NCBI RefSeq assembly: GCF_900105135.1 | Contig: NZ_LT629741.1 | Location: 2,705,001-2,769,000, forward strand | DNA length: 64,000 nt | Source: Gramella sp. MAR_2010_147 | Lineage (GTDB): Bacteria; Bacteroidota; Bacteroidia; Flavobacteriales; Flavobacteriaceae | Direction: 5' to 3' | The notes under the pieces: model-generated | The model's input: the letters and a program-made list of their open reading frames with translations, nothing else | Told to the model about the DNA's origin: nothing | Databases searched by the model: none | Translations under genes and position numbers: made by a program | Part shown: positions 1,888 through 25,851 of the stretch, one piece after another | How the letters are laid out: every line of letters starts with the position of its first letter | Position numbering within the stretch: position 1 is the stretch's first letter

Positions 1888-4800
1888 TTATGCTGTTTTA
1901 AGATCTACCTCTTCTTCTTTTCGTTTTTCTGCTTCAATCTTTTGAAGCGCTTTTTTATACTCTGTAGGCATTACCTTTATAAATCCTTTTGAAGTCTGCT
2001 CCCAATTATTTAAAATTTCTTTAGCCACTTCACTTTCGGTATACTGATAATGCTTCACGATAAGCTCTTCCAGTTCCTGTAAATTATTTTCAGAAGGAGC
2101 TTCCAGTTCTATCATTTCCATATTGAAATTATTCCTGTCCAGATTATTCTCCAGATCAAAAATGTAAGCAATTCCACCGCTCATTCCGGCAGCAAAATTT
2201 CTACCTATTTCTCCTAGAATTACGGCTACCCCACCGGTCATATATTCACAACCATGGTCTCCAATTCCTTCTATTACAGCCTTGGCTCCAGAGTTTCTAA
2301 CACAAAAACGTTCTCCTCCAATTCCGTTTATATATGCTTCACCGGTTACAGCTCCGTACAAGGCAACATTCCCAATAATGATGTTTTCATTAGATTTAAA
2401 GGTTGCTTCTTTAGGTTTTCTAATTGAAAGTACTGCTCCGGAAAGTCCTTTACCAAAATAATCATTGGAATTACCTTCAATATTCAGGTTTAAACCTTTG
2501 GCAGCAAATGCGCCGAAACTTTGACCGGCTGATCCATTAAAATTCAGCGTTAAAGTATTTTTCGGTAATCCTATAGAACCGTGAATTTTGGAAATTTCAT
2601 TACTAATGATCGTTCCGGTAGTTCGGTTGGTGTTACTAATGGGATAACTAAGTGTTACAGGTTCTTTCCTGTAAATCGCCGGATGCGCCTGTCTTAAAAT
2701 TTCAAAATCCAGCACCCCTTCAATATTATGCAGTTGCTTTTCAGTATTTGAAAGCGGCACACCAGGCTTGATATTAGGTTTGTGAAGGATGTTAGAAAGG
2801 TCAATTCCCTGGGCTTTATAATGCTTAATGGCTTTATTGGTATCCAGTTTTTGAGACTGACCTACCATTTCTTTCATACTTCTAAAGCCTAATTGAGCCA
2901 TGATTTCTCTCAATTCCTGTGCAATGAAATACATGAAATTGATCACATTTTCAGGAGTTCCTTTAAAATTCTTACGGAGCTCAGGATCCTGAGTGGCAAT
3001 ACCCACGGGACAGGTGTTCAGATGACAGGCACGCATCATGATGCATCCCGTTGCAACAAGAGGAGCCGTAGAGAATCCAAATTCTTCAGCACCTAGTAGA
3101 CAGGCAATCGCCACGTCACGACCTGTTTTTAACTGTCCATCACATTCCACAACAATTCTACTTCTTAGATTGTTTAATAAGAGCGTTTGCTGTGCTTCAG
3201 CAACTCCAAGTTCCCACGGTAATCCCGCGTGTCGCAAGGAAGTTAATGGAGAAGCTCCTGTACCTCCATCATAGCCCGAAATAAGGACTACATCGGCTTT
3301 TGCTTTCGCTACACCAGCGGCAATAGTACCAACGCCAACCTTTGAAACCAGTTTTACATTGATACGTGCCTCTCTATTAGCATTTTTAAGATCAAAAATT
3401 AACTGCGCCAAATCCTCAATAGAATAAATATCATGGTGAGGAGGAGGGGAGATCAATCCTACATATGGCGTAGAATTTCTCGTTTTCGCAATATCCGGAT
3501 TTACTTTTGCTCCGGGTAATTGTCCACCTTCCCCGGGTTTAGCTCCCTGAGCCATCTTTATTTGAATCTCACCTGCACTGGAGAGATAGTCTATACTCAC
3601 CCCAAATCTTCCTGAAGCTACCTGTTTAATAGCAGAATTTCTCCAGTTTCCATTAATGTCTTTCTGAAAACGATCGGCATCTTCACCACCTTCACCAGAA
3701 TTACTTTTCCCCTTGATTCGGTTCATGGCAATGGCCAAATTCTCGTGTGCTTCTTTGCTTATAGATCCAAAAGACATAGCGCCAGTTTTAAATCTTTTTA
3801 CGATCTCCGTCCACGGCTCAACTTCTTCAATTGGAACTGGATTTAGTTCCTTGAATTTGAACATTCCCCTTATGGTCATAAGCTTTTCATTCTGCTCATT
3901 GATGATGTTGGAATATTCAGTATAGGTTTCGTATGAATTCTGTTTTACAGCTTGCTGAAGTTTTGCAACGCTGGCAGGATTAAAAACATGACGTTCTCCA
4001 TTTCTTCTCCAGCGGTAATCTCCTCCCATTTCAAGATCCAGATCGGTTTCAGTTTCGGGTGGAAAGAAAGCGTGTTGATAACGTTTTTGAATTTCCTTCT
4101 CTACTTCGTAAAGGCCAATACCTTCGATTCTTGTGGGTGTATTACAAAAATATTTATTGACGAATTTCTTATTAAGCCCTAAAATTTCAAAGATCTGTGA
4201 TCCCCGATAGGAGAGAAGTGTTGAAATACCAATTTTGTTCATAATTTTCACGATCCCTTTTCCGATGGCGATATTGAAATTTTCAACGGCTACTTCAGGA
4301 TCTTTTACATCGATCTCCTTTCTTTCTACAAGGTCGTAGATCACTTCATTAACCATATAAGGATTAATGGCACTTGCTCCATATCCAAATAAAGCAGCAA
4401 AATGATGTGGTTCCCGTGGTTCGGCAGATTCTATTACTATGCCGAAAGAAGACCTTTTATTATGGTCTTTCGCCCGATGGTGTACAAATGAACAGGCCAG
4501 TAACGATGGAATTGGAGCCAGTTTTGGGTTTACATTCCTGTCTGAAAGTATGATCACATTACAACCATCATCTACAGCATGTTTAATTTCTGTGATCATT
4601 TCCTCCAAACGATCCTCAAGACCGTTCATGCCTTTCTCAGCTTCATAAAGCATAGAAATTGACTTTGCCTTAAAGCCGGGATAATCTATATATTTTATCT
4701 TGTCAAGATCCTCATTGGAAATAACTGGATTCTGAATTTTCAATTTTTTACACTGCTCGGGAATAATTTTGAACAGGTTAATATCTTCTCCAACAGAGAG

Positions 4801-6411
4801 GCTTATATCGGTCACTATTTCTTCCCGGATCCCGTCTAGTGGCGGATTGGTCACCTGCGCAAAAAGCTGCTTGAAATAATTGAATAATAGTTGTGGTTTA
4901 TCAGAGAGTACTGCCAAAGGAATATCGGTACCCATAGAACCAATAGCTTCTTTAGCCTGAGAGGCCATAGGCGATATGATCGTGGAGATATCTTCATAGG
5001 TATATCCAAAAAGTTTGAGTCTTGTGATATACGGGATGTCTTCCACAGGCGTTTTATTACCAGTATAAGGTACCTCTGCCAGGGGCAACAGGTTCTCGTC
5101 AAGCCAGTTCCTATAAGGTCTTTCTGTAACAATTTTCTCTTTTACTTCTTCATCCTCAATAATTCGACCTTCAATCATATCGACTAGAAACATCCTTCCA
5201 GGTTCCAGTCTACCATGTTTTAGTACATTTTCCGGCTTGATGTCCAATACACCGGTTTCAGATGACATTACTACATACCCATCTTTGGTAACCGTATATC
5301 TTGAAGGACGTAATCCATTTCTATCGAGTAAGGCACCTATATAATTTCCATCGGTAAACGGAATAGATGCCGGCCCATCCCATGGTTCCATGATACAGGC
5401 ATTATATTCGTAGAATGCTTTTTTCTTATCCTTCATAGAAGGATTCTTTTCCCAGGCTTCCGGAACCATCATCATGATAGCTTCGGGCAGGGATCTCCCG
5501 GTTTGTAGCAGGAGCTCTAATGCCATATCCATAGAAGCGGAATCAGATTTCCCTTCCATAGTAATAGGAACTATCTTTTTGATGTCTTCTCCAAAAGTGT
5601 CGCTTTCAAAAAGCTCTTCCCGGGCTTTCATTCTACTCAGGTTACCACGCAGGGTATTAATTTCCCCATTGTGACACATATATCTAAATGGTTGTGCCAG
5701 GTCCCAGGTTGGGAAGGTGTTGGTTGAAAATCGCTGGTGCACCAGAGCCAGTTTTGTGATCACATCTGGATCATTAAGGTCTTTATAATATTCATTGATA
5801 TCCTGGGGCATCAAAAGACCTTTATATATAATGGTATTGGTGGAAAGACTTGAGAAGTAAAAATATTCACTCTCGGCAAGACCAGAATTTTCAATGTTGT
5901 GTTCTGCGATCTTACGGGCTGTATAAAGCTTGGCATTAAAATCCCGATCTTCCAGTTTTTCAGGACGTCCAACAAAAACCTGCTGAATTGCAGGTTCTAC
6001 ATTACTTGCCATTTTACCCAGACAGGAATGATTTACCGGAACTTTTCTCCATCCAAGCACTTGCAATTGCTGTTTTTTAATTTCTTTTTCAAAAGTATCT
6101 TTACAGATCGCTGCCTGGCTCTTATTCTTTGGAAGAAAGACCATCCCAACCGCATATTCCCGGGACCCGGGTAAATTGAATTCACATACTTTTTTAAAGA
6201 ATTCGTGCGGTACTTCAATAAGAATACCAGCACCATCCCCTGTTTTTCCATCAGCACTTACGGCACCTCTATGTTCTAGCCGAACAAGGATATCTATAGC
6301 CTTATGAATTATATTATTAGTTCTTTCTCCGTTAAGATTACAAATAAATCCCGCTCCACAATTATCTCTCTCATAAAGAGGGGAGTAGAGTCCCTGTTCT
6401 TTCATTTTCAT
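1888..6411 (-). CDS. gltB: Glutamate synthase large subunit
   Basis: Large subunit of glutamate synthase: the N-terminal glutamine amidotransferase releases ammonia, which is channelled to the FMN site and condensed with 2-oxoglutarate. The nucleophile is Cys18 in DNCGAGF; if the second Met (residue 3) is the true start this becomes Cys16, and a short leader is normally removed. The FMN domain has the GGEGGED and AKPGEGGQLPG segments. The 3Fe-4S cluster is seen as CIMMRACHLNTCPVG. The C-terminal glycine-rich beta-helix (GXGXG) contains the segment MTGGVAVILG. Its 1507 residues are close to the usual 1480-1520. It is the first gene of the gltBD operon; no clear promoter was found upstream. Confidence 0.97.
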   Translation of the reverse strand: MKMKEQGLYSPLYERDNCGAGFICNLNGERTNNIIHKAIDILVRLEHRGAVSADGKTGDGAGILIEVPHEFFKKVCEFNLPGSREYAVGMVFLPKNKSQAAICKDTFEKEIKKQQLQVLGWRKVPVNHSCLGKMASNVEPAIQQVFVGRPEKLEDRDFNAKLYTARKIAEHNIENSGLAESEYFYFSSLSTNTIIYKGLLMPQDINEYYKDLNDPDVITKLALVHQRFSTNTFPTWDLAQPFRYMCHNGEINTLRGNLSRMKAREELFESDTFGEDIKKIVPITMEGKSDSASMDMALELLLQTGRSLPEAIMMMVPEAWEKNPSMKDKKKAFYEYNACIMEPWDGPASIPFTDGNYIGALLDRNGLRPSRYTVTKDGYVVMSSETGVLDIKPENVLKHGRLEPGRMFLVDMIEGRIIEDEEVKEKIVTERPYRNWLDENLLPLAEVPYTGNKTPVEDIPYITRLKLFGYTYEDISTIISPMASQAKEAIGSMGTDIPLAVLSDKPQLLFNYFKQLFAQVTNPPLDGIREEIVTDISLSVGEDINLFKIIPEQCKKLKIQNPVISNEDLDKIKYIDYPGFKAKSISMLYEAEKGMNGLEDRLEEMITEIKHAVDDGCNVIILSDRNVNPKLAPIPSLLACSFVHHRAKDHNKRSSFGIVIESAEPREPHHFAALFGYGASAINPYMVNEVIYDLVERKEIDVKDPEVAVENFNIAIGKGIVKIMNKIGISTLLSYRGSQIFEILGLNKKFVNKYFCNTPTRIEGIGLYEVEKEIQKRYQHAFFPPETETDLDLEMGGDYRWRRNGERHVFNPASVAKLQQAVKQNSYETYTEYSNIINEQNEKLMTIRGMFKFKELNPVPIEEVEPWTEIVKRFKTGAMSFGSISKEAHENLAIAMNRIKGKSNSGEGGEDADRFQKDINGNWRNSAIKQVASGRFGVSIDYLSSAGEIQIKMAQGAKPGEGGQLPGAKVNPDIAKTRNSTPYVGLISPPPHHDIYSIEDLAQLIFDLKNANREARINVKLVSKVGVGTIAAGVAKAKADVVLISGYDGGTGASPLTSLRHAGLPWELGVAEAQQTLLLNNLRSRIVVECDGQLKTGRDVAIACLLGAEEFGFSTAPLVATGCIMMRACHLNTCPVGIATQDPELRKNFKGTPENVINFMYFIAQELREIMAQLGFRSMKEMVGQSQKLDTNKAIKHYKAQGIDLSNILHKPNIKPGVPLSNTEKQLHNIEGVLDFEILRQAHPAIYRKEPVTLSYPISNTNRTTGTIISNEISKIHGSIGLPKNTLTLNFNGSAGQSFGAFAAKGLNLNIEGNSNDYFGKGLSGAVLSIRKPKEATFKSNENIIIGNVALYGAVTGEAYINGIGGERFCVRNSGAKAVIEGIGDHGCEYMTGGVAVILGEIGRNFAAGMSGGIAYIFDLENNLDRNNFNMEMIELEAPSENNLQELEELIVKHYQYTESEVAKEILNNWEQTSKGFIKVMPTEYKKALQKIEAEKRKEEEVDLKTA

Positions 6412-7028: not shown

Positions 7029-10000
7029 ATGGAAATTATTACATCCCGGATGGGGTCTGCAAAGATTCCTATCCTAAATGAAAAAGACAGGGAACCTGTT
7101 GTGGGTTCTGTTATGAAACAATTATCCAAAAATTGGAGCCTGTTTTTAACAGTAGCTTTTTTACTTTTTGGATATCAGGAAGCGTTAATTGCACAAACTA
7201 ATATTAAGGGACTTGTACCTGTTTTACAACCTCTGGGCGGTCACAATATTGATGGGAATGCATATGTAAATGTTAATGGTGAACCCGGAGGGGACTGGCT
7301 CTTTGAGTTTGGGACAGATCCTGTGAACAAGAATCCAGGAGGAGTATTTCCTCCTTCAGCATCAGACGGGATTGCAGAGGGAATTCCAGATGTTCCGTTT
7401 CCAGATGATTTTTATCTCTATCCCGGGCAAACCACTTTTTTTAGAGATAATATTACTAATAATGATCCTACCATTTTTACCAGCTCCAACAAAATAAATG
7501 ACAATCCCAACACCTATACCTGGGGAACAGGATCTTCACCTAATAAAAACGAGATTCAAAATGCGATCTCGCATTTTTCATTCGCCGATCCCAATTTACC
7601 TCACGGAAATGAAGGAGACCTCTGGTTAATCTTTGCCGCAGACCGGCAGGTAACAAATGGGAGTAGCTATATAGATTTTGAAATTCTTCAGAAACCATTA
7701 ACTGCAGAGCCTGGTGGAACCTTTACATCCTTGGGAACAGAAGGGGGTAGAACGCTTGGAGATATCCTTATCACTATTGAATTTACCAATGGAGGAGGAG
7801 CAGCAAAAGTTGTGACCAGGCGCTGGGTGGCTAACGGAAACGGTTTTATTTATGAAATATTCACACCGGTTATGGGAACCATTTTTGGTACTGAAAACGA
7901 TGTGGCTACCATTGTACCTTATTCTATCTATTTTCAGGATCCTATTAATCCAGCTGGTTTTTATCAATACTCTATCAACCAGTGGGCAGAAGGAGCCGTA
8001 AATGTTACTTCCTTTTTTCCTGAAGATGCTTGTGTGAATTTGAGTACTTTATTCGTAAGAACCCGAACTTCTGGTAATTCAACTCAGTCTGAGTTAAAAG
8101 ACTTTCCAGGTAAACCAATTCAAATTACCATAGACCTTACTCCTCCAGCACCGCAACTTACAGATGTTTCGGCTTGTGATTTATGGGATGATACACTTAT
8201 CGCTGAAGGCTGCGAAGGTACCGTTAATTGGTACGCTCAGGAAGAAGGTGGTTCTTCAATTCATACAGGTGCAAATTTTTCACCTGGCGAAATTACCGAA
8301 ACTACCTCATATTGGGCAAGTTGTACGGTTAATGAATGTGAGGGCCCAAGAGCGAAGGTGACAATTACAATTTATGACTCACCTGCTATAGAAATTGGCT
8401 CTACAGATATAAGTTGTTTTGGAGAAGATGATGGAGTAGTATCTATTGCCAGTGCGAGTGGATATGATCTTCTGGAACTGTATCAGGTAAATAATGAAGG
8501 AGATGATAATTTTATAGACAGTAATACAGATGGAAGTAATTTTACAGGTCTTGGACCTGGTGAGTATTATGTGGTCGCTTCACTTGAGGCAGAAGCAGAG
8601 CTTACTTGTTCCACAACCAGTAATACTGTTGAAATTGAAGAGCCACCACTTCTGGAACTGGTTTTAGATGATGTGATAGATGTTAACTGTTTTGGCTTTG
8701 CCGATGGAGCTATTTCTATAACCGCTTCGGGTGGAACCGGAGCCTATACTTATGATTGGGAAGATATTGAAGGTGATGATAACGTGGAAGATAGATCAGG
8801 TCTTATCGCCGGGTCTTATTCTGTAACCGTTACCGATGATAATGGTTGTACTGCAAGCCTGAATGATATTATGGTAGCCGAGCCAACAGAATTGATGGCT
8901 CAGGTAGATGAAGTGACCCATGTTAGCTGTTTTGGATTTTCCGATGGAGCCATAGATATTTCGGTTAGTGGAGGTACTCCTCCTTATTCCTATGATTGGG
9001 ATGATATCGCCGAAGAAAATGAGCCGGAAGACAGAACAGGTCTTTTCGCAGGCACTTATTCCGTAATCATTACAGATGATAATGGATGTGAAGTAAGTCT
9101 TGACGATATTCTGGTGGATGAACCAACAGAATTGACTGCCCAGGTAGATAATATAGTAGACGCAACTTGTAGTGGCTTCGAGAACGGAGAGATCTATATA
9201 AGTGCTAGTGGAGGAACCCCTCCTTATACTTATGATTGGGCCGATCTTGAAGGTGATGATAATGTGGAAGATCGAATTGGTGTTGCCGCAGGATTCTATT
9301 CAGTAGTGATTACAGATGCAAATGGATGTACTACAGAACTTGAAGATATTGAATTGGAAGATCCTTCAGATCTTGAAGCTCAGGTAGATTCTGTGGAAGA
9401 TGTGAGTTGTTTTGGATTTAGTGATGGAGCTATTAATATAAGTGTGAGTGGAGGAACTCCTCCATATACTTATAACTGGGATGATCTTGAAGGAGACGAT
9501 AATCCGGAAGACCGTACAGGAATTACTGCCGGATCATATTCTGTAACTATTACAGATGATAATGGTTGTATCTATAGTCTTAACGACATTCTGGTTAATG
9601 AGCCACCCGCTTTACAGGGTGAAGTTTCAGATTCTATGAATCCAACATGCTTCGGATTTACAGATGGCTTTATAGATATAACTATTAGCGGAGGTACACC
9701 ACCTTATACCTATGATTGGGCCGATCTTGAAGGTGACAATAACCCTGCAGACAGGACTAATATTGGTGGAGGATCGTATAACGTGACAGCCACCGATGCT
9801 AATGGTTGTGAATTCAAGCTGGAGAATATCATGCTTGATGAACCATTGAAACTTATGGTAGATCTAGTACCCACTCCAGAAAGTTGTGAATTCAATGATG
9901 GAGTGATTACGGTGAATGCTTCTGGAGGCACATCTCCTTACGAGTTTTCTTTAGATGGAGTATCATATCAATTATCTAATATGTTTGACGGATTGGCTGC

Positions 10001-10763
10001 TGGAAATTATACCGTGTATACTCGGGATGCTAACGAATGTATCTCTCAGGATCCTGTAGCTATAGATCCACCTGAAAATTGTATTGTAGATGAAGGTTGT
10101 ACTCTTGGGTATTGGAAAAACCATACAGACAGATGGTGTGATGCTTACGCAACCTGTGATACTTATGGTGATATCTATATAGATGCACCAGCGGCTATAG
10201 CCAGTCTCAGCTTACTGGAAGTATTGAATATTGGAGGTGGAGATATCTATAATCTGGGTCGTCAATCAGTAGCTGCATTGTTAAACACCTGTAGTATAGA
10301 AGTAGGGTTTACATATTCCAGTGTAGAGAGTCTAATCAGTGATGTAAATGACGCTTTTGCCAATGGAGAGGCGGGATCATTTGGAACATATTTAGACGGA
10401 TTAAACCAGGCAGGATGCCCGTTAGGTGGATCTTCGGCAACTACTGCACCTACTTCACCTGAATGTGATGCGCCAGCTGCAAGTCTTCTGGCAGATGTTG
10501 CTTCTAGTGGATTTAGTGTGTCACCGGTGCCCTTTGGTGACCAGGTAAGTGTGAAGTATCATTTTGATTATACTTCGAATGTAAATATTCAGTTCTTTAA
10601 TCTAAGCGGACAAATGCTTCAAAACTTCAAGTTTAAGGGCGTTTCCACCGGGGATATCAATGACTTGAATGTGGGTGCCTTTGTTAGGTCTGGTCAGGCT
10701 TATATTATAAAAGTGAACACCGACAGAGAAAGTTTCTCTAAAACAATTATTTCTTCGGAATAA
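7029..10763 (+). CDS. Large T9SS-exported surface protein with SprB-type repeats
   Basis: A 1244-residue exoprotein. A long positively charged N-region is followed by a hydrophobic stretch (about residues 38-52) ending near ALIAQ, a signal peptide; ATG at 7113 (residue 29) is an alternative start giving a standard-length signal. Residues about 56-370 form an N-terminal domain I do not recognise. An Ig-like linker follows. From about residue 457 to 1017 there are seven SprB-type repeats (CFGFxDGxIxIxxSGGTPPYTYDW), five of them spaced exactly 80 residues apart. A cysteine-rich domain starting GCTLGYWKNHTDRW (about 1021-1150) precedes a C-terminal type A sorting domain (about 1160-1244) that begins SPVPF. 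SprB repeats occur in mobile gliding adhesins, so an adhesive surface role is likely, not shown. Its C-terminal half resembles the next gene, a paralogue. Confidence 0.85.
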   Translation: MEIITSRMGSAKIPILNEKDREPVVGSVMKQLSKNWSLFLTVAFLLFGYQEALIAQTNIKGLVPVLQPLGGHNIDGNAYVNVNGEPGGDWLFEFGTDPVNKNPGGVFPPSASDGIAEGIPDVPFPDDFYLYPGQTTFFRDNITNNDPTIFTSSNKINDNPNTYTWGTGSSPNKNEIQNAISHFSFADPNLPHGNEGDLWLIFAADRQVTNGSSYIDFEILQKPLTAEPGGTFTSLGTEGGRTLGDILITIEFTNGGGAAKVVTRRWVANGNGFIYEIFTPVMGTIFGTENDVATIVPYSIYFQDPINPAGFYQYSINQWAEGAVNVTSFFPEDACVNLSTLFVRTRTSGNSTQSELKDFPGKPIQITIDLTPPAPQLTDVSACDLWDDTLIAEGCEGTVNWYAQEEGGSSIHTGANFSPGEITETTSYWASCTVNECEGPRAKVTITIYDSPAIEIGSTDISCFGEDDGVVSIASASGYDLLELYQVNNEGDDNFIDSNTDGSNFTGLGPGEYYVVASLEAEAELTCSTTSNTVEIEEPPLLELVLDDVIDVNCFGFADGAISITASGGTGAYTYDWEDIEGDDNVEDRSGLIAGSYSVTVTDDNGCTASLNDIMVAEPTELMAQVDEVTHVSCFGFSDGAIDISVSGGTPPYSYDWDDIAEENEPEDRTGLFAGTYSVIITDDNGCEVSLDDILVDEPTELTAQVDNIVDATCSGFENGEIYISASGGTPPYTYDWADLEGDDNVEDRIGVAAGFYSVVITDANGCTTELEDIELEDPSDLEAQVDSVEDVSCFGFSDGAINISVSGGTPPYTYNWDDLEGDDNPEDRTGITAGSYSVTITDDNGCIYSLNDILVNEPPALQGEVSDSMNPTCFGFTDGFIDITISGGTPPYTYDWADLEGDNNPADRTNIGGGSYNVTATDANGCEFKLENIMLDEPLKLMVDLVPTPESCEFNDGVITVNASGGTSPYEFSLDGVSYQLSNMFDGLAAGNYTVYTRDANECISQDPVAIDPPENCIVDEGCTLGYWKNHTDRWCDAYATCDTYGDIYIDAPAAIASLSLLEVLNIGGGDIYNLGRQSVAALLNTCSIEVGFTYSSVESLISDVNDAFANGEAGSFGTYLDGLNQAGCPLGGSSATTAPTSPECDAPAASLLADVASSGFSVSPVPFGDQVSVKYHFDYTSNVNIQFFNLSGQMLQNFKFKGVSTGDINDLNVGAFVRSGQAYIIKVNTDRESFSKTIISSE
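8688..9887 (+). repeat. Five in-phase 240-bp SprB-repeat units
   Basis: The CxGF motif codons recur near 8688, 8928, 9168, 9408 and 9648, one every 240 bases (80 residues). More divergent copies lie on each side (near 8412 and 9886). The DNA of these units differs visibly from copy to copy, so this array is old, unlike the one in the next gene. Confidence 0.85.
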
Positions 10764-10813: not shown

Positions 10814-11129
10814 GGAAGTGTTTATATAGGGGGAAACACTTATTTTTTGTTTTTAAGTGCAGTTTTTAGGGTGTAAAATTCTGATATTGAGAAAATTAGT
10901 TCAATTTATTTTATATTTGAAATACTATTGTTACAAAATCAATTCCCTACTATTTTCTAATAGTTGATTTCTTGCCCCCTAAAATTTTTATTTACTCCCC
11001 CCGTTGAAATTTACTGACTGTTTTTAAATAGATCAGATGCAAAAAATTCCTGAAATAGTACTTGCATTGAATTTGTTACATTTTTAGTACATATTCAATT
11101 TTTATTAAAAGGTCCCCTGGATCGTAAAT

Positions 11130-11141
11130 TTTCTTCCCCCC
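11130..11141 (+). promoter_or_regulatory. C-rich leader motif TTTCTTCCCCCC, copy 2
   Basis: Exact match to 6914-6925. It lies ten bases before an inverted repeat (11151-11167) and about 171 bases before the start codon. The function is inferred only from its recurrence before two related genes. Confidence 0.35.
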
Positions 11142-11150
11142 GGTAGATGG

Positions 11151-11167
11151 TATGTCATCACGACATA
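11151..11167. promoter_or_regulatory. Inverted repeat TATGTC-N5-GACATA, possible operator
   Basis: Six-base perfect arms 11151-11156 and 11162-11167 with a 5-base spacer have the geometry of a dimeric regulator site. No matching copy was seen before the first exoprotein gene. A chance match is possible. Confidence 0.3.
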
Positions 11168-11311
11168 ATTCCCTGGCTTTTTATAGCTCAGGTTCTCTGC
11201 CCTACTCTTAAAAATTTTGAGCGATGTTTTCCTCATATCATTGGGAAACGTCACAGTACCCAATCTTCCTTTTTCCTGCACCTATGGTCTAACCATTAAA
11301 AACTATTAATT

Positions 11312-14300
11312 ATGAATGATTTTACATTGAAATCTTTTGATTGGTTTTTAAAATCCAAAAAAAGATTAGTTATAAAACAAACCATTTGGATTATTCCTTT
11401 ACTCCTTTTGGTATTCAATGGTCCGTTTCTTTTCGGACAATCTGCAGATTTGGATCAGGTAAGGAATGGAGGCATTGATAATGTCACTGATCCAGGAGAT
11501 TGGGTAAATGGAAATGCTGGTAAACAAACTTCTCATTATGCTGAGGGTATGTCAATTCCCTATAGAGTAATCATGGAGGATATGACTGCTGGTCAAACCG
11601 TAGAATTAATATTAGAATATGATGTAAAGCATAGTGGAAAACATGCTTTAGATTATTTGACTAGTTACGATAGACTCCAACCTCATGAATTAGCATTTGG
11701 GCATCCCAATCAGGAAGAGATTGATCCAACAATAGGAATTACAGGTTTTTCCGAACCACCTGATGATACTCATCCTATTCCAACTCCGCCGTCTGTTGGT
11801 TCTCCCGTCTCAGGACAACCAGGGGATAGTTTTGAGTTAATTAGTGATGCAGGAGATGCAGAAATGTCCATATGGAATGCTACTCTAACAGATGTGTTCT
11901 ATGGACCTGCAGCAGCAGGAAATTTAAGCGAGGATAAAGTTGCCCAGCAAATCACCGTTTCTTTTACGGTAATCAATTCTGGTACTGTAATTCTTGCATG
12001 GGGAGGTCATATCGCTAGTAGAATAGATTGGGGAGAATTTGGCGGTGTGCCTCAATCAGCAGGTGGTATTTCAGGGTCTCCGTACCATATGAGATTAATT
12101 GATTGGAATTTAAATAATCTTGGTAATCAAGACAGGTCTCTATCTGCTGATGCTGTTGTACCTGCTCCTACCTGTGAACTTGCAGGACCAGATTTGATCT
12201 GCGAAGGACAGGAAGGTGTTATTTATACGTTAACTCCTTTGGGGGCGGAAGATCCCACGTATATCTGGGAAATCTTAAATAATACAGCCGGAGCTTCTTT
12301 TGTAGATCCTGTCCCAAATGATTTGAGTACTCAGGCCGAGATTATAACTACCGCTAGTGGTAGTTATACTGTGAGAGTGACAATTACCTCTGCTTTTGGT
12401 ACTAATATATGTCAAGTGGTTGTAACCGTGGATGAAGCTCCAGTAGTTGCGGACAAGTCCGTGTGTGTTGGTTCGACTGTGGACTTTGGTCCAAGTGGCA
12501 CCTATACATCTTCGGATACTTCGGTAGCGACCATCGACAATGATGGGGTAGCCACTGGAGTAAGTGGAGGTAGTGCGACTATTACGTATACTGATGGCAA
12601 TGGCTGTCAGGGCACAGCGACCATTACGGTCAATGCGCTACCAGTAGTTGCGGACAAGTCCGTGTGTGTTGGTTCGACTGTGGACTTTGGTCCAAGTGGC
12701 ACCTATACATCTTCGGATACTTCGGTAGCGACCATCGACAATGATGGGGTAGCCACTGGAGTAAGTGGAGGTAGTGCGACCATTACGTATACTGATGGCA
12801 ATGGCTGTCAGGGCACAGCGACTATTACAGTAAGTTCGAATCCAGATCTAGGTGATGCTTCCGTATGTGTTGGATCAACGGTGGATATGGGTATTGGAGC
12901 AGGTACATATAGTTCTTCCGACACTTCGGTAGCGACCGTCGATACTGATGGGGTAGTGACCGGTGTAAGTGCTGGTAGTGCGACGATTACTTATAGTGAT
13001 GGTAATACTTGTTCCGACACAGCGACCATTACAGTCAATGCGAACCCAGTAGTTGCGGACAAGTCCGTATGTGTTGGTTCGACTGTGGACTTTGGTCCAA
13101 GTGGCACCTATACATCTTCGGATACTTCGGTAGCGACCATCGACAATGATGGGGTAGCCACTGGAGTAAGTGGAGGTAGTGCGACTATTACGTATACTGA
13201 TGGCAATGGCTGTCAGGGCACAGCGACCATTACGGTCAATGCGCTACCAGTAGTTGCGGACAAGTCCGTGTGTGTTGGTTCGACTGTGGACTTTGGTCCA
13301 AGTGGCACCTATACATCTTCGGATACTTCGGTAGCGACCATCGACAATGATGGGGTAGCCACTGGAGTAAGTGGAGGTAGTGCGACCATTACGTATACTG
13401 ATGGCAATGGCTGTCAGGGCACAGCGACTATTACAGTAAGTTCGAATCCAGATCTAGGTGATGCTTCCGTATGTGTTGGATCAACGGTGGATATGGGTAT
13501 TGGAGCAGGTACATATAGTTCTTCCGACACTTCGGTAGCGACCGTCGATACTGATGGGGTAGTGACCGGTGTAAGTGCTGGTAGTGCGACGATTACTTAT
13601 AGTGATGGTAATACTTGTTCCGACACAGCGACCATTACAGTCAATGCGAACCCAGTAGTTGCGGACAAGTCCGTGTGTGTTGGTTCGACTGTGGACTTTG
13701 GTCCAAGTGGCACCTATACATCTTCGGATACTTCGGTAGCGACCATCGACAATGATGGGGTAGCCACTGGAGTAAGTGGAGGTAGTGCGACTATTACGTA
13801 TACTGATGGCAATGGCTGTCAGGGCACAGCGACCATTACGGTCAATGCACTACCAGTAGTTGCGGACAAGTCCGTGTGTGTTGGTTCGACTGTGGACTTT
13901 GGTCCAAGTGGCACCTATACATCTTCGGATACTTCGGTAGCGACCATCGACAATGATGGGGTAGCCACTGGAGTAAGTGGAGGTAGTGCGACTATTACGT
14001 ATACTGATGGCAATGGCTGTCAGGGCACAGCGACCATTACGGTCAATGCACTACCAGTAGTTGCGGACAAGTCCGTGTGTGTTGGTTCGACTGTGGACTT
14101 TGGTCCAAGTGGCACCTATACATCTTCGGATACTTCGGTAGCGACCATCGACAATGATGGGGTAGCCACTGGAGTAAGTGGAGGTAGTGCGACCATTACG
14201 TATACTGATGGCAATGGCTGTCAGGGCACAGCGACTATTACAGTAAGTTCGAATCCAGATCTAGGTGATGCTTCCGTATGTGTTGGATCAACGGTGGATA

Positions 14301-17300
14301 TGGGTATTGGAGCAGGTACATATAGTTCTTCCGACACTTCGGTAGCGACCGTCGATACTGATGGGGTAGTGACCGGTGTAAGTGCTGGTAGTGCGACGAT
14401 TACTTATAGTGATGGTAATACTTGTTCCGACACAGCGACCATTACAGTCAATGCGAACCCAGTAGTTGCGGACAAGTCCGTATGTGTTGGTTCGACTGTG
14501 GACTTTGGTCCAAGTGGCACCTATACATCTTCGGATACTTCGGTAGCGACCATCGACAATGATGGGGTAGCCACTGGAGTAAGTGGAGGTAGTGCGACTA
14601 TTACGTATACTGATGGCAATGGCTGTCAGGGCACAGCGACCATTACGGTCAATGCGCTACCAGTAGTTGCGGACAAGTCCGTGTGTGTTGGTTCGACTGT
14701 GGACTTTGGTCCAAGTGGCACCTATACATCTTCGGATACTTCGGTAGCGACCATCGACAATGATGGGGTAGCCACTGGAGTAAGTGGAGGTAGTGCGACC
14801 ATTACGTATACTGATGGCAATGGCTGTCAGGGCACAGCGACTATTACAGTAAGTTCGAATCCAGATCTAGGTGATGCTTCCGTATGTGTTGGATCAACGG
14901 TGGATATGGGTATTGGAGCAGGTACATATAGTTCTTCCGACACTTCGGTAGCGACCGTCGATACTGATGGGGTAGTGACCGGTGTAAGTGCTGGTAGTGC
15001 GACGATTACTTATAGTGATGGTAATACTTGTTCCGACACAGCGACCATTACAGTCAATGCGAACCCAGTAGTTGCGGACAAGTCCGTATGTGTTGGTTCG
15101 ACTGTGGACTTTGGTCCAAGTGGCACCTATACATCTTCGGATACTTCGGTAGCGACCATCGACAATGATGGGGTAGCCACTGGAGTAAGTGGAGGTAGTG
15201 CGACTATTACGTATACTGATGGCAATGGCTGTCAGGGCACAGCGACCATTACGGTCAATGCGCTACCAGTAGTTGCGGACAAGTCCGTGTGTGTTGGTTC
15301 GACTGTGGACTTTGGTCCAAGTGGCACCTATACATCTTCGGATACTTCGGTAGCGACCATCGACAATGATGGGGTAGCCACTGGAGTAAGTGGAGGTAGT
15401 GCGACCATTACGTATACTGATGGCAATGGCTGTCAGGGCACAGCGACTATTACAGTAAGTTCGAATCCAGATCTAGGTGATGCTTCCGTATGTGTTGGAT
15501 CAACGGTGGATATGGGTATTGGAGCAGGTACATATAGTTCTTCCGACACTTCGGTAGCGACCGTCGATACTGATGGGGTAGTGACCGGTGTAAGTGCTGG
15601 TAGTGCGACGATTACTTATAGTGATGGTAATACTTGTTCCGACACAGCGACCATTACAGTCAATGCGAACCCAGTAGTTGCGGACAAGTCCGTATGTGTT
15701 GGTTCGACTGTGGACTTTGGTCCAAGTGGCACCTATACATCTTCGGATACTTCGGTAGCGACCATCGACAATGATGGGGTAGCCACTGGAGTAAGTGGAG
15801 GTAGTGCGACTATTACGTATACTGATGGCAATGGCTGTCAGGGCACAGCGACCATTACGGTCAATGCGCTACCAGTAGTTGCGGACAAGTCCGTGTGTGT
15901 TGGTTCGACTGTGGACTTTGGTCCAAGTGGCACCTATACATCTTCGGATACTTCGGTAGCGACCATCGACAATGATGGGGTAGCCACTGGAGTAAGTGGA
16001 GGTAGTGCGACCATTACGTATACTGATGGCAATGGCTGTCAGGGCACAGCGACTATTACAGTAAGTTCGAATCCAGATCTAGGTGATGCTTCCGTATGTG
16101 TTGGATCAACGGTGGATATGGGTATTGGAGCAGGTACATATAGTTCTTCCGACACTTCGGTAGCGACCGTCGATACTGATGGGGTAGTGACCGGTGTAAG
16201 TGCTGGTAGTGCGACGATTACTTATAGTGATGGTAATACTTGTTCCGACACAGCGACCATTACAGTTCTTCCTCTTCCTGAAATCCCAGAAATTGAAACC
16301 CAGCTAGCTGATTGTATTGGTGGAGATGGAAGTTTTATATTCCTTGGAAATCCGCAGAACTTATATATTAGTTTTGATGATGGAGAAACCTTTGATCTAT
16401 ATGTGGGAGCAATTTCACTTTCAGTAGGGCCTCACGATTTTGTAATCAAATATGGAGAAGATGGATGTGTGAGTGATTCTGGACAAGTAGAAATTCAGCA
16501 ACTTCCGGCAACTAACTTCCCTCTTAACCCAACAATTACTCAGCCAGATTGTGAAACTGGTTTAGGAAATGTAGTGATAAGAGTTGGCATAAACACTGAT
16601 ATTGATACAGGATTCTTTACATACAGAATTACTAGTGGAGAAACTGTTTATTATGATCAAAAGCAAACACTAGCCGGATTTGATCTTCCTCCAGGTAACT
16701 ATGTTATCTTTGGTATCAGTGATAATGGTTGTGATTCCGGAAGAATTGAGATAGTTCTAGAAGAACCTATCTGTGAAGAATTCGAAGGTTGTACCTTAGG
16801 TTATTGGAAAAATCATACAGATAGATGGCCTGCTGCTCAACCAGAAGATCCAAGCGACAATATTTGTAATACGTTTGAAACTTGTACTGAGTATGGAAAA
16901 GTGTTTACCAATGCTCCTTCATCGATTAGTGGAATGAGCTTGCTAGAAGCTTTAAATGCAAAAGGTGGCGGAATATATAACTTAGCTCGTCAATCAGTAG
17001 CGGCGTTATTAAATTCCTGTAAAGGCGAAGTGAATTATGAAATAGCTTCACCTGAGGAGGTTATTGCTTATGTAAATGCTAATTTTAACAATGCTGGTGC
17101 TGCCGGTAGTTATTTAGATGAATTGAACAACGCCGGTTGTACGCTTGGAGGATCAAGAGCTACTTCAGCACCAAATGGTGATTGTCCTAATACAGATGAT
17201 ACCAAACCAGGTAAAGGTAAGCCTCGCAATAATAGTAGAATTGCGGAAAATAGTTTTAGTGCTTCTCCAGTGCCATTCAATGACAGGTTAACAATTCAGT

Positions 17301-17515
17301 ATGACTTTGAATATACTTCCAAAAAAGTAGAAATTCAGGTTTATGACCTAAGTGGTAGACTTCTTAGAACTTATCATGACAAGAAAGTGACTAAAGGAGA
17401 CACGAAAGAGCTGAATATTGATTTTGCAATGAAATCGAATCAGGTATATATCCTGAGGATGGTGACAGATCGTGAAGTATTAACTAAAAACGTGATCTCA
17501 TCTTCGAGAAAGTAA
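11312..17515 (+). CDS. Giant T9SS-exported surface protein with 19 near-identical Ig-like (BIG_2) repeats
   Basis: A 2067-residue exoprotein. The signal peptide has a long charged N-region and a hydrophobic core (about residues 24-40) ending near LFGQS. Residues about 42-290 form an unrecognised beta-rich domain, followed by an Ig/PKD-like linker (about 290-375). Residues about 377-1655 are 19 BIG_2-type Ig-like repeats, each with two cysteines (VCVG and GNGC or GNTC). Two more linker domains follow, then a GCTLGYWKNHTDRW domain (about 1825-1950), a basic linker (GKGKPRNNSR) and a type A sorting domain beginning SPVPF. The C-terminal quarter parallels the upstream gene, so these are tandem paralogues with different stalks. 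A long stalk presenting an N-terminal tip domain would suit an adhesin, by inference. The start ATG at 11312 is preceded by an A-rich leader. Confidence 0.85.
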   Translation: MNDFTLKSFDWFLKSKKRLVIKQTIWIIPLLLLVFNGPFLFGQSADLDQVRNGGIDNVTDPGDWVNGNAGKQTSHYAEGMSIPYRVIMEDMTAGQTVELILEYDVKHSGKHALDYLTSYDRLQPHELAFGHPNQEEIDPTIGITGFSEPPDDTHPIPTPPSVGSPVSGQPGDSFELISDAGDAEMSIWNATLTDVFYGPAAAGNLSEDKVAQQITVSFTVINSGTVILAWGGHIASRIDWGEFGGVPQSAGGISGSPYHMRLIDWNLNNLGNQDRSLSADAVVPAPTCELAGPDLICEGQEGVIYTLTPLGAEDPTYIWEILNNTAGASFVDPVPNDLSTQAEIITTASGSYTVRVTITSAFGTNICQVVVTVDEAPVVADKSVCVGSTVDFGPSGTYTSSDTSVATIDNDGVATGVSGGSATITYTDGNGCQGTATITVNALPVVADKSVCVGSTVDFGPSGTYTSSDTSVATIDNDGVATGVSGGSATITYTDGNGCQGTATITVSSNPDLGDASVCVGSTVDMGIGAGTYSSSDTSVATVDTDGVVTGVSAGSATITYSDGNTCSDTATITVNANPVVADKSVCVGSTVDFGPSGTYTSSDTSVATIDNDGVATGVSGGSATITYTDGNGCQGTATITVNALPVVADKSVCVGSTVDFGPSGTYTSSDTSVATIDNDGVATGVSGGSATITYTDGNGCQGTATITVSSNPDLGDASVCVGSTVDMGIGAGTYSSSDTSVATVDTDGVVTGVSAGSATITYSDGNTCSDTATITVNANPVVADKSVCVGSTVDFGPSGTYTSSDTSVATIDNDGVATGVSGGSATITYTDGNGCQGTATITVNALPVVADKSVCVGSTVDFGPSGTYTSSDTSVATIDNDGVATGVSGGSATITYTDGNGCQGTATITVNALPVVADKSVCVGSTVDFGPSGTYTSSDTSVATIDNDGVATGVSGGSATITYTDGNGCQGTATITVSSNPDLGDASVCVGSTVDMGIGAGTYSSSDTSVATVDTDGVVTGVSAGSATITYSDGNTCSDTATITVNANPVVADKSVCVGSTVDFGPSGTYTSSDTSVATIDNDGVATGVSGGSATITYTDGNGCQGTATITVNALPVVADKSVCVGSTVDFGPSGTYTSSDTSVATIDNDGVATGVSGGSATITYTDGNGCQGTATITVSSNPDLGDASVCVGSTVDMGIGAGTYSSSDTSVATVDTDGVVTGVSAGSATITYSDGNTCSDTATITVNANPVVADKSVCVGSTVDFGPSGTYTSSDTSVATIDNDGVATGVSGGSATITYTDGNGCQGTATITVNALPVVADKSVCVGSTVDFGPSGTYTSSDTSVATIDNDGVATGVSGGSATITYTDGNGCQGTATITVSSNPDLGDASVCVGSTVDMGIGAGTYSSSDTSVATVDTDGVVTGVSAGSATITYSDGNTCSDTATITVNANPVVADKSVCVGSTVDFGPSGTYTSSDTSVATIDNDGVATGVSGGSATITYTDGNGCQGTATITVNALPVVADKSVCVGSTVDFGPSGTYTSSDTSVATIDNDGVATGVSGGSATITYTDGNGCQGTATITVSSNPDLGDASVCVGSTVDMGIGAGTYSSSDTSVATVDTDGVVTGVSAGSATITYSDGNTCSDTATITVLPLPEIPEIETQLADCIGGDGSFIFLGNPQNLYISFDDGETFDLYVGAISLSVGPHDFVIKYGEDGCVSDSGQVEIQQLPATNFPLNPTITQPDCETGLGNVVIRVGINTDIDTGFFTYRITSGETVYYDQKQTLAGFDLPPGNYVIFGISDNGCDSGRIEIVLEEPICEEFEGCTLGYWKNHTDRWPAAQPEDPSDNICNTFETCTEYGKVFTNAPSSISGMSLLEALNAKGGGIYNLARQSVAALLNSCKGEVNYEIASPEEVIAYVNANFNNAGAAGSYLDELNNAGCTLGGSRATSAPNGDCPNTDDTKPGKGKPRNNSRIAENSFSASPVPFNDRLTIQYDFEYTSKKVEIQVYDLSGRLLRTYHDKKVTKGDTKELNIDFAMKSNQVYILRMVTDREVLTKNVISSSRK
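12441..16277 (+). repeat. 3,837-bp array of 19 near-identical coding repeats (13 A of 201 bp, 6 B of 204 bp)
   Basis: Units begin at the CAGTAGTTGC or CAGATCTAGG string. Unit A is 201 bp and unit B 204 bp; the order is AAB AAB AAAB AAB AAB AAB. Copies of the same type differ only at a few sites, for example GTGTGT/GTATGT near the first cysteine, GCGACT/GCGACC before ATTACG, and GCGCTA/GCACTA at the A-A junctions. All units keep the reading frame. The near-identity, also at silent positions, indicates very recent amplification or active homogenisation; repeat number is probably variable and may be misassembled. Confidence 0.95.
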
Positions 17516-17583: not shown

Positions 17584-18726
17584 TTAGTCTTTAAGAATGC
17601 TTCTTGAGATCACAATTTTCTGAATCTCAGAAGTACCTTCATAGATCTGAGTGATCTTAGCATCTCTCATTAACCGTTCTACATGATATTCTTTTACATA
17701 ACCATTTCCCCCATGAACCTGAACTGCTTCTACACTAACATCCATGGCTGTTTTCGAAGCATATAATTTTGCCATGGCACCAGAAAGATCATAATTTTGT
17801 CCCTGGTCTTTATCCCATGCCGCTTTCATTACAAGATGCCTCGAAGCCTCAATGGAGGTATACATATCGGCTAACTTAAATGCGATAGCCTGATGGTTGC
17901 AAATTTCGGTTCCAAAAGCTTTTCGTTGCTTGGAGTAATCTTTGGCTAGTTCATAAGCTCCAGAAGCGATACCCAAAGCCTGAGCAGCAATTCCAATTCT
18001 TCCACCAGAAAGCGTTTTCATTGCAAATTTAAATCCGAAACCATCTTCGCCAATTCTGTTCTCTTTTGGAACCTTTACATCATTAAAATTCAATGAATGT
18101 GTATCGCTACCTCTAATTCCTAGTTTTTGTTCTTTAGGGCCTATCTCAAAACCTTCAGAATCTTTTTCAACGATAAAGGCATTAATTCCCTTATGTTTTT
18201 TCTCTTTATCTGTTTGAGCGATCACTAAATAATAATCGGCTGAATTACCGTTGGTAATCCAGTTCTTTGTTCCATTAAGAATATAATGATCTCCCTTATC
18301 TATTGCAGTTGTTCGTTGTGAAGTTGCATCACTTCCTGCTTCTGGTTCTGAAAGACAAAAAGCTCCCAGTTTTTCACCAGTGGTTAATTTAGATAGATAT
18401 TTTTTCTTCTGGTCTTCGTTCCCAAAGGTATCCAGCCCCCAGCATACTAATGAATTATTCACAGATATCATCACTGAGGCCGAAGCATCGATTTTCGAGA
18501 TTTCTTCCATAGCCAGTACATAAGAGATCGTGTCCATTCCCCCACCACCGTATTCCGGAGAAGCCATCATTCCAAGAAATCCAAGATCTCCCATTTTTTT
18601 GACAAGCTCTTTTGGAAATTCCTGTTTTTCATCTCTCTCGATCACACCCGGCAATAATTCTGTTTTTGCAAAATCACGAGCGGCATCGCGTATCATTATA
18701 TGTTCTTCGGTAAGTTTAAAATCCAT
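17584..18726 (-). CDS. Acyl-CoA dehydrogenase (short-chain/butyryl type)
   Basis: FAD enzyme that introduces the 2,3 double bond in acyl-CoA during fatty-acid or branched-chain amino-acid breakdown, handing electrons to electron-transfer flavoprotein. All 380 residues match the usual family length. Seen: the FAD-binding segment LGAFCLSEPEAGSD, the middle beta domain with TKNWITNG, and the C-terminal helix bundle with QVHGGNGYVKEYHVER and IYEGTSEIQ, where the first Glu of YEGTSEIQ is the usual catalytic base of short-chain members. It stands alone, divergent from anmK; the short gap of about 92 bases holds both promoters. The exact substrate cannot be read from the sequence. Confidence 0.93.
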   Translation of the reverse strand: MDFKLTEEHIMIRDAARDFAKTELLPGVIERDEKQEFPKELVKKMGDLGFLGMMASPEYGGGGMDTISYVLAMEEISKIDASASVMISVNNSLVCWGLDTFGNEDQKKKYLSKLTTGEKLGAFCLSEPEAGSDATSQRTTAIDKGDHYILNGTKNWITNGNSADYYLVIAQTDKEKKHKGINAFIVEKDSEGFEIGPKEQKLGIRGSDTHSLNFNDVKVPKENRIGEDGFGFKFAMKTLSGGRIGIAAQALGIASGAYELAKDYSKQRKAFGTEICNHQAIAFKLADMYTSIEASRHLVMKAAWDKDQGQNYDLSGAMAKLYASKTAMDVSVEAVQVHGGNGYVKEYHVERLMRDAKITQIYEGTSEIQKIVISRSILKD

Positions 18727-25523: not shown

Positions 25524-25553
25524 TTGTGTAAATGAAAATCTAGTCTATATTTG
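25524..25553 (+). promoter_or_regulatory. tRNA-Val promoter TTG-N19-TATATTTG
   Basis: TTG at 25524-25526, a spacer of exactly 19 bases, and TATATTTG at 25546-25553: the full Bacteroidota housekeeping promoter form, 17 bases before the first tRNA-Val. Confidence 0.8.
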
Positions 25554-25570
25554 CATCCGCAATCACGCAA

Positions 25571-25645
25571 GGGCGCGTAGCTCAGTTGGTTCAGAGCACT
25601 TGGTTTACACCCAAGGGGTCAGGGGTTCGAATCCCTTCGCGCCCA
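25571..25645 (+). tRNA. tRNA-Val (anticodon TAC), copy 1
   Basis: A 75-nt cloverleaf: acceptor arms GGGCGCG/CGCGCCC, D arm GCTC...GAGC, anticodon stem CTTGG/CCAAG with loop TTTACAC (anticodon TAC, valine), and T arm AGGGG-TTCGAAT-CCCTT. The discriminator base is A; the CCA end is not encoded. Confidence 0.97.
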
Positions 25646-25653
25646 CAGAATCG

Positions 25654-25744: not shown

Positions 25745-25752
25745 TATATTTG
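25745..25752 (+). promoter_or_regulatory. -7 element TATATTTG of tRNA-Val copy 2
   Basis: The same box and downstream leader as before copy 1, 199 bases later. Unlike copy 1, the expected -33 position (25723-25725) reads ATA, not TTG, so this promoter may be weaker. Confidence 0.6.
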
Positions 25753-25769
25753 CATCCGCAATCACGCAA

Positions 25770-25844
25770 GGGCGCGTAGCTCAGTTGGTTCAGAGCACTT
25801 GGTTTACACCCAAGGGGTCAGGGGTTCGAATCCCTTCGCGCCCA
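25770..25844 (+). tRNA. tRNA-Val (anticodon TAC), copy 2
   Basis: Identical in sequence to the copy at 25571-25645. The match runs from TATATTTG through the leader and tRNA into the terminator with only a few differences, so the whole transcription unit was duplicated in tandem. Confidence 0.97.
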
Positions 25845-25851
25845 CATAATC

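What the first reader, a model, noticed from the sequence alone, without database searches (positions are those of the whole stretch)
12441..16277. Hierarchical, near-identical 19-unit coding repeat array in a giant surface protein
Units A (201 bp) and B (204 bp) follow the pattern AAB AAB AAAB AAB AAB AAB across 3,837 bp. Copies differ at only a few bases, with silent differences reused at the same places. The 606-bp AAB block seems to be the duplicated unit. The upstream paralogue's SprB repeats are much more divergent, so this is fresh amplification or ongoing conversion. All indel steps are multiples of 3, so recombination would change stalk length without breaking the protein: a likely length-variation system for a cell-surface adhesin.
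Basis: partly seen in the sequence, partly recalled or inferred. Interest (0 to 1): 0.75.

Follow-up and report, generated by a model that had tools for sequence, protein, structure and literature searches.

The report
Homogenised protein stalk, swapped between species
A marine bacterium carries a long surface protein whose stalk is made of 19 almost identical Ig-like domains, and related species carry, at the same spot in the chromosome, proteins with similar ends but different stalks, which suggests that stalks and heads are mixed and matched by recombination.

Summary
A 2067-aa ORF contains 19 Big_2 (Ig-like) units, AAB AAB AAAB AAB AAB AAB (12440-16266). The working repeat is a 606-bp A1-A2-B block: blocks 2, 4 and 5 are identical, and only two silent sites vary among blocks (mean pS 0.006; gltB dS to the nearest relative 1.28).

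The array is one state of a wider locus. In 22 of 24 genus genomes (Christiangramia/Gramella) one or more repeat proteins with a related T9SS-type tail lie beside gltB or the acyl-CoA dehydrogenase; one more keeps only a tail remnant, and one has an empty site. They combine five N-domain families with about ten groups of stalk repeats, many internally homogenised. The closest relative keeps the N-domain (90%), but DNA homology stops within 4 bases of the array; stalk and C-half differ. Another sister pair shows the reverse swap. In one sister pair 24 of 24 units match best within species, in another only 4 of 16; unit numbers differ in two sister pairs (15 v 10; 9 v 7).

So: a periscope-like, Alp-like mosaic stalk locus in Bacteroidota. 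Length variation within a species, and adhesion, are not shown.

The parts
11312..17515 (+). Surface-protein gene, 2067 aa: N-domain, 19 Big_2 units, C-terminal region, T9SS tail
11312..12439 (+). N-terminal region, family N2 (376 aa; signal peptide by eye only): beta-sandwich plus one Ig-like domain in the model; 90% identical to that of G007
11128..12443 (+). Stretch with 84.9% DNA identity to G007; homology ends within 4 bases of the array start
12440..16266 (+). Array of 19 Big_2 units, AAB AAB AAAB AAB AAB AAB
12440..13045 (+). Block 1 (A1 A2 B)
13046..13651 (+). Block 2 (A1 A2 B), identical to blocks 4 and 5
13652..14458 (+). Block 3 (A1 A1 A2 B); both A1 share a private silent change at unit position 198, so the extra A1 is most simply a local 201-bp duplication
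14459..15064 (+). Block 4 (A1 A2 B)
15065..15670 (+). Block 5 (A1 A2 B)
15671..16266 (+). Block 6 (A1 A2 B, last 10 bp of B missing)
16787..17185 (+). C-terminal GCTLGYWKNH module (edges approximate); exact GYWKNH string in locus pieces of 12 of 24 genus genomes
17267..17494 (+). T9SS type A sorting tail (PF18962 30.6 bits v cut-off 27; TIGR04183 22.5 v cut-off 23)
7029..10763 (+). Upstream paralogue: N-domain family N1, 6 SprB repeats, same C-module; tail over the NCBIfam cut-off (36.5 v 23), under Pfam's (20.2 v 27)
1888..6411 (-). Left border gene gltB (glutamate synthase large subunit), found in 24 of 24 genus genomes
17584..18726 (-). Right border gene, acyl-CoA dehydrogenase

Best explanation
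The array is the stalk of a T9SS-exported, surface-attached fibrillar protein, and the gltB - acyl-CoA dehydrogenase interval is a mosaic stalk locus. Two processes act on it. (1) Unequal exchange between in-frame units, probably RecA-type recombination or slippage, expands, shrinks and homogenises an array; here its working unit became the 606-bp A1-A2-B block. (2) Less often, recombination with a cut at or near the array edge swaps N-domain against stalk plus C-half, or the reverse, between genes of this locus in related bacteria. Expected effect: related tails carry different heads on stalks of different length and kind. Shown here: the array, its recent homogenisation, concerted evolution in some relatives, unit-number differences between species, mosaic N/stalk/C combinations and a conflicting C-half tree. 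Inferred: the recombination enzymes, the surface position, the stalk function and any benefit.
For: Array and blocks. Domains and tail; SprA (T9SS) once in the own genome. Recent homogenisation. Locus in relatives: query of the last 274 aa matched in 23 of 24 genomes (in nine of them only the last ~50-115 aa), gltB in 24 of 24. Four N families among 26 N-ends (25 linked, E<=1e-10), a fifth from G015 and G001 ends; ten unit groups among 24 arrays (E<=1e-6). G000 v G007, sisters by gltB (100/99): DNA homology 84.9% up to 12443, none in the array, again from 16763 and 16964; in the C-half tree G000 joins G016 (98/98) and G007 joins G022 (100/100), AU rejects G000+G007, p 0.0016. Reverse swap: sisters G003 and G013 (100/98) share array units at 83-90% and C-half plus dehydrogenase at 86.4% DNA (gltB 87.0%), but G003 has N2 and G013 N4; N4 was not found in G003. 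KN1008 (L094): one contiguous 997-aa gene joins an N4 domain (52-54% to two N4s, 26-28% over part of N1) to a stalk and C-end 54% like the window's N1 gene. Concerted evolution: G019_b/G009_c 24 of 24 units best within species, G011/G018 29 of 31. Big_2 array at the same locus in KN1008.
Against: No within-species copy-number data. Concerted evolution is not general: best match within species in 17 of 25 units for G018/G023 and only 4 of 16 for G019_a/G009_b. G003's gene is split over contigs, so its N2-array joint is seen only through the first unit. KN1008's second gene holds a run of N. N1, N4 and N5 show weak mutual similarity (26-37%), so 'families' may be remote relatives, and some stalk groups may be one Ig/PKD superfamily; 'different' means not linked at the stated E-values. 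The shared C-part is the full module in 14 of 24 genomes at most (exact GYWKNH in 12), else only the tail. G020 keeps only a 57-aa tail piece with a stop. The N2 stretch has dS 0.50 v gltB 1.28, so it may itself have moved; direction of each swap is unknown. No recombinase was looked for.
Confidence: 0.75

Rival explanations
1. Ready-made import: the whole Big_2 array arrived as an array from a distant donor, rather than being amplified in place.
For: Array GC3 is 0.098 above the host-codon expectation (0.380 v 0.282). In a search of 299 family genomes 8 matched at E<=1e-8, the own one and seven of other genera, best 53% aa (of the genus only G000 and G003 are named in that list).
Against: A Big_2 array sits at the same locus in KN1008, so the unit type is at home in the genus; GC3 excess is positive in 9 of 18 arrays with both values (of 24) and unrelated to homogeneity, and the array has few independent codons; protein hits elsewhere are 36-53% identical (best 120 of 2994 seen).
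Confidence: 0.2
2. Programmed, high-frequency length variation (a contingency locus) that changes stalk length within a culture.
For: Exact repeats of up to 1610 bp and unit-number differences in two of three sister pairs; periscope proteins vary between similar strains (PMC8201768, section 7 read).
Against: No strain data; blocks already carry two silent sites; G019_b/G009_c have 12 v 12 units.
Confidence: 0.35
3. Assembly artefact: unit number or order wrongly resolved.
For: In 10 of 16 draft relatives I counted gltB and the dehydrogenase as separated by contig ends, and two more hold N runs, so the locus is hard to assemble; the read type of the own genome is unknown.
Against: Own genome is one contig; private silent sites tie copies to positions; the seven other single-contig genus genomes also carry tandem arrays here.
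Confidence: 0.08
4. Identity kept by purifying selection on the protein, with no exchange between units.
For: No non-synonymous difference between the five 606-bp stretches compared.
Against: Silent sites are nearly as invariant (mean pS 0.006) while gltB silent sites have dS 1.28 to G007.
Confidence: 0.02

Closest known systems
Periscope proteins (SasG, Rib, Sgo_0707, CdrA; PMC8201768 section 7 and passages, PMC9704523 passages)
   Same: Single-chain surface protein, N-terminal domain on a stalk of folded, highly identical tandem domains; length in whole units; homologous recombination proposed as cause
   Different: T9SS tail instead of a wall anchor or inverse autotransporter; strain-level length variation not shown; stalk family itself differs between related species at one locus
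Streptococcal alpha-like proteins (Alp/Rib/alpha C; PMC13106166 passages; Lachenauer 2000 seen only as a reference in PMC9704523)
   Same: Mosaics of an N-terminal domain and different types of near-identical ~80-aa repeats; repeat type and number vary
   Different: There: strains and species of Streptococcus, genes on mobile elements in S. dysgalactiae. Here: Bacteroidota, a syntenic place over a genus and some relatives, about ten repeat groups without mutual blastp links, up to three or so genes side by side; mobile elements were not searched for
SprB-type gliding adhesins of Flavobacterium (recalled, no call)
   Same: T9SS-exported giant repeat proteins; SprB repeats in the paralogue
   Different: No gliding role tested; the finding's own array is Big_2, not SprB

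Membership tests
Periscope proteins | Stalk of tandem, folded, highly identical domains in one chain | tested here: met
   19 Big_2 stretches, 606-bp blocks 99-100% alike; folding inferred from the Pfam family
Periscope proteins | Repeat number varies between strains | not testable with these tools
   No second strain listed; between sister species 15 v 10, 9 v 7, 12 v 12
Periscope proteins | Attached to the cell surface | tested here: inconclusive
   T9SS tail over the Pfam cut-off, just under the NCBIfam cut-off; SprA present
Periscope proteins | N-terminal ligand-binding domain | tested here: inconclusive
Periscope proteins | Rod-like array | not tested
   Array not modelled
Alp-like mosaic | Same N-domain with different repeat types and the reverse | tested here: met
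Alp protein family | Homologous Alp N-domain, Rib repeats, LPXTG anchor | tested here: not met
   Pfam at E<=1e-3 lists Big_2 and a T9SS tail, no Rib or Gram-positive anchor; works like, is not a member
Big_2 (PF02368) | Match over the curated cut-off | tested here: met
   422.7 bits v 22.8, 19 stretches; 19 of 19 hits in the own genome lie in this ORF
T9SS type A cargo | C-terminal sorting domain | tested here: inconclusive
   PF18962 30.6 bits v 27 (met); TIGR04183 22.5 v 23 (just missed)

The most novel reading that the evidence does not exclude
A fixed chromosomal place, shared across a genus and at least partly with Salinimicrobium and Gillisia, works as a head-and-stalk exchange site: the array edge is the preferred crossover point, stalk families are replaced wholesale between sister species, and a new stalk is then rapidly homogenised. 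It would be a Bacteroidota, T9SS counterpart of the streptococcal Alp mosaics, running on many more domain families.
Probability: 0.45. Interest if true: 0.62.

Novelty: new variant of a known kind. Interest (0 to 1): 0.5.

Why it matters
The periscope and Alp passages that I saw deal mainly with streptococci, staphylococci and other germs of people and animals, with immune pressure as one driver. Here a similar logic appears in a genus of flavobacteria known (recalled) mostly from the sea, where phage, grazer, particle or competitor contact become candidate drivers (inference). Eight single-contig genomes (own plus seven) make rate and swap questions testable, and draft genomes often hide the locus because assemblies break in it.

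Tried and rejected
GC-biased conversion as the cause of the high array GC: rejected; most of the excess is amino-acid make-up. GC3 excess positive in 9 of the 18 arrays that had both values (of 24 listed), no correlation with homogeneity (rho 0.17, p 0.5).

Strain-level copy number from the protein collection: one search listed the best 120 of 497 proteins, none but the own record over 62% identity; (best 120 of 2484) gave G018's and G023's own records, two member sequences each, and G011's (73%), no further strain.

A close donor for the A/B units: none. No Pfam family for the G003 N2 piece. The automatic unit splitter merged some units (G023, G005_P1, G009_b, G009_c) and understates their identity; the nhmmer split replaces it where used. 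In one search, eleven of 37 gene pieces were left out of the N set and seven out of the C set as lacking that end; one C-set row (G005_b) is really an N-end piece put in by mistake and is the one unlinked C row; it matched none of the N families. In one search one of ten rows (G021_C) was dropped for lack of the module. In one search the 'broken' list was set by hand; G020 is counted as broken although its dehydrogenase was not found, and the empty-site genome G002 is among the 16 drafts; for the 12 better drafts P is 1e-5 to 2.2e-4. VIA-align cannot exclude folds that Foldseek ranked low; the plain Foldseek search did not run.

In print: searches listed no title on this locus (listings only).

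Confidence went from 0.78 to 0.75 for these.
Full report
THE OBSERVATION. The ORF 11312-17515 (2067 aa) holds one tandem array, 12440-16266. Pfam finds 19 Big_2 stretches and a T9SS sorting tail; NCBIfam scores the tail just below its cut-off (22.5 v 23). All 19 Big_2 hits of the own genome lie in this ORF; the genome is a single 3,158,483-bp contig.

BLOCK STRUCTURE. A is of two kinds, A1 (ends NAL) and A2 (ends SSN), so the working block is A1-A2-B, 606 bp. Blocks 2, 4 and 5 are identical over 606 bp. Only two sites vary among blocks, both silent and both in A1; both A1 copies of the AAAB block share a private silent change, so the extra A1 is most simply a local duplication. Mean pS among the five 606-bp stretches compared (for block 3 its last 606 bp) is 0.006. 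A against B has dS 0.74, so A and B are old and the block is young. A short history suffices: a two-block duplication (b1 b2 to b3 b4), further block steps, one 201-bp duplication, two silent changes (inference); conversion is allowed but not required.

THE LOCUS IN RELATIVES. The genus set has 24 genomes, own included, eight of them single-contig: G000, G006, G007, G008, G016, G018, G019, G023. gltB is in 24 of 24. The last 274 aa of the window's protein match in 23 of 24, always with a hit on a contig that also holds gltB or the acyl-CoA dehydrogenase close by. In 14 genomes the match covers the GYWKNH module (exact string in 12); in the other nine only the last ~50-115 aa, the tail; in G020 it is a 57-aa piece with a stop. 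In the 24th genome, G002, the two border genes lie about 230-240 bp apart with nothing between: an empty site. I used G002 as outgroup of the gltB tree, so that it is the earliest branch is an assumption. Elsewhere one to three or so repeat proteins lie there, in drafts as pieces on contig ends. The dehydrogenase also follows the C-module in three Salinimicrobium, two Gillisia and one Flavobacteriaceae MAG records (L086-L088, L082, L096, L098); in S. terrae (L085) the module is on the far side of gltB.

MODULES. Of 26 N-ends compared, 25 fall into four blastp families (E<=1e-10); the odd one (G015_b) and three G001 ends and another G015 end form a fifth. N1, N4 and N5 show weak similarity to one another (26-37%). 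Of 30 C-ends 29 link together, in part only by the tail; the odd one was an N-end piece put in by mistake. Twenty-four arrays fall into ten unit groups (E<=1e-6). Family N2 goes with Big_2 (G000), a 252-bp unit (G007), a 249-bp unit (G003), a 279-bp unit (G010), a 282-bp unit (G022) and, in its distant member G017, a PKD-like unit. SprB stalks go with N1 and N3 and, by likeness to the window's N1 gene, with N4 in KN1008. Many groups probably share an Ig/PKD-like sandwich, so they may be remotely related.

SWAPS. (1) G000 and G007 are sisters by gltB (100/99). Their N2 domains are 90% identical; DNA homology of 84.9% stops at window 12443, the array starts at 12440, and homology returns in a short piece at 16763 and firmly at 16964. 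In the C-half tree G000 sits with G016 (98/98; G016 is a long branch) and G007 with G022 (100/100); the AU test rejects G000+G007 (p 0.0016). G007's array is followed by one diverged unit of the G022 kind, perhaps a relic of an earlier stalk. (2) Sisters G003 and G013 (100/98) share array units at 83-90% and the C-half with the dehydrogenase at 86.4% DNA, like gltB (87.0%), but have N2 and N4 respectively, and N4 is not found in G003 at E<=1e-20. G003 is broken within the array. (3) In KN1008 (L094) one contiguous gene joins an N4 domain (52-54% to G013 and G006 N4; 26-28% over parts of two N1s) to a stalk and C-end 54% alike to those of the window's N1 gene.

HOMOGENISATION AND LENGTH. Best match within the own species: G019_b/G009_c (12 v 12 units) 24 of 24; G011/G018 29 of 31 (the two first units are the exceptions); G018/G023 (15 v 10) 17 of 25, end units orthologous; G019_a/G009_b (9 v 7) only 4 of 16, with the extra units in one inner run. 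So homogenisation is strong in some arrays and weak in others. KN1008 carries a Big_2 array at this locus, about 99% alike inside and 70.6% to unit A. By my count 10 of 16 drafts have the border genes on different contigs and two more have N runs, against 2.7-3.9 breaks expected at random (0 of 400,000 simulations to 3.5e-5; for the 12 drafts with 90 contigs or fewer, 6 broken against 0.7-1.2, P 1e-5 to 2.2e-4).

LITERATURE. Periscope proteins (PMC8201768 section 7 and passages; PMC9704523 passages) are the closest functional class; Alp mosaics (PMC13106166 passages) the closest genetic one. 'Bacteroid' occurs 0 times in the main text of the first two.

VERDICT. Real, correctly described, and best read as a new variant of a known kind: a periscope-like stalk in an Alp-like mosaic locus of Bacteroidota.

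Noticed in passing
window 25546-25647 and 25745-25846: Two identical 102-bp copies, each around a tRNA-Val (TAC) gene.
   Followed up: partly
L195 (G002), between gltB and the acyl-CoA dehydrogenase: Empty site: about 230-240 bp between the two genes and no match to the C-end in that genome.
   Followed up: partly
window 11128-12443 v G007: N2 region has dS 0.50 to G007, against 1.28 for gltB and 1.33 for the C-end: the N-domain may have moved between the two lineages after they split.
   Followed up: no
G007 (L011), unit after the 252-bp array: One diverged unit of the G022 282-bp kind follows the array, perhaps a relic of a former stalk.
   Followed up: partly
L085 (Salinimicrobium terrae): C-module gene lies on the far side of gltB, which is next to the dehydrogenase.
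   Followed up: no
L011 8095-10017 +: A 641-aa open frame runs antisense through the 252-bp array of G007; probably a by-product of the repeat.
   Followed up: no
L190 (G020): A 57-aa tail piece with a stop beside gltB: perhaps a decayed copy of a locus gene.
   Followed up: no
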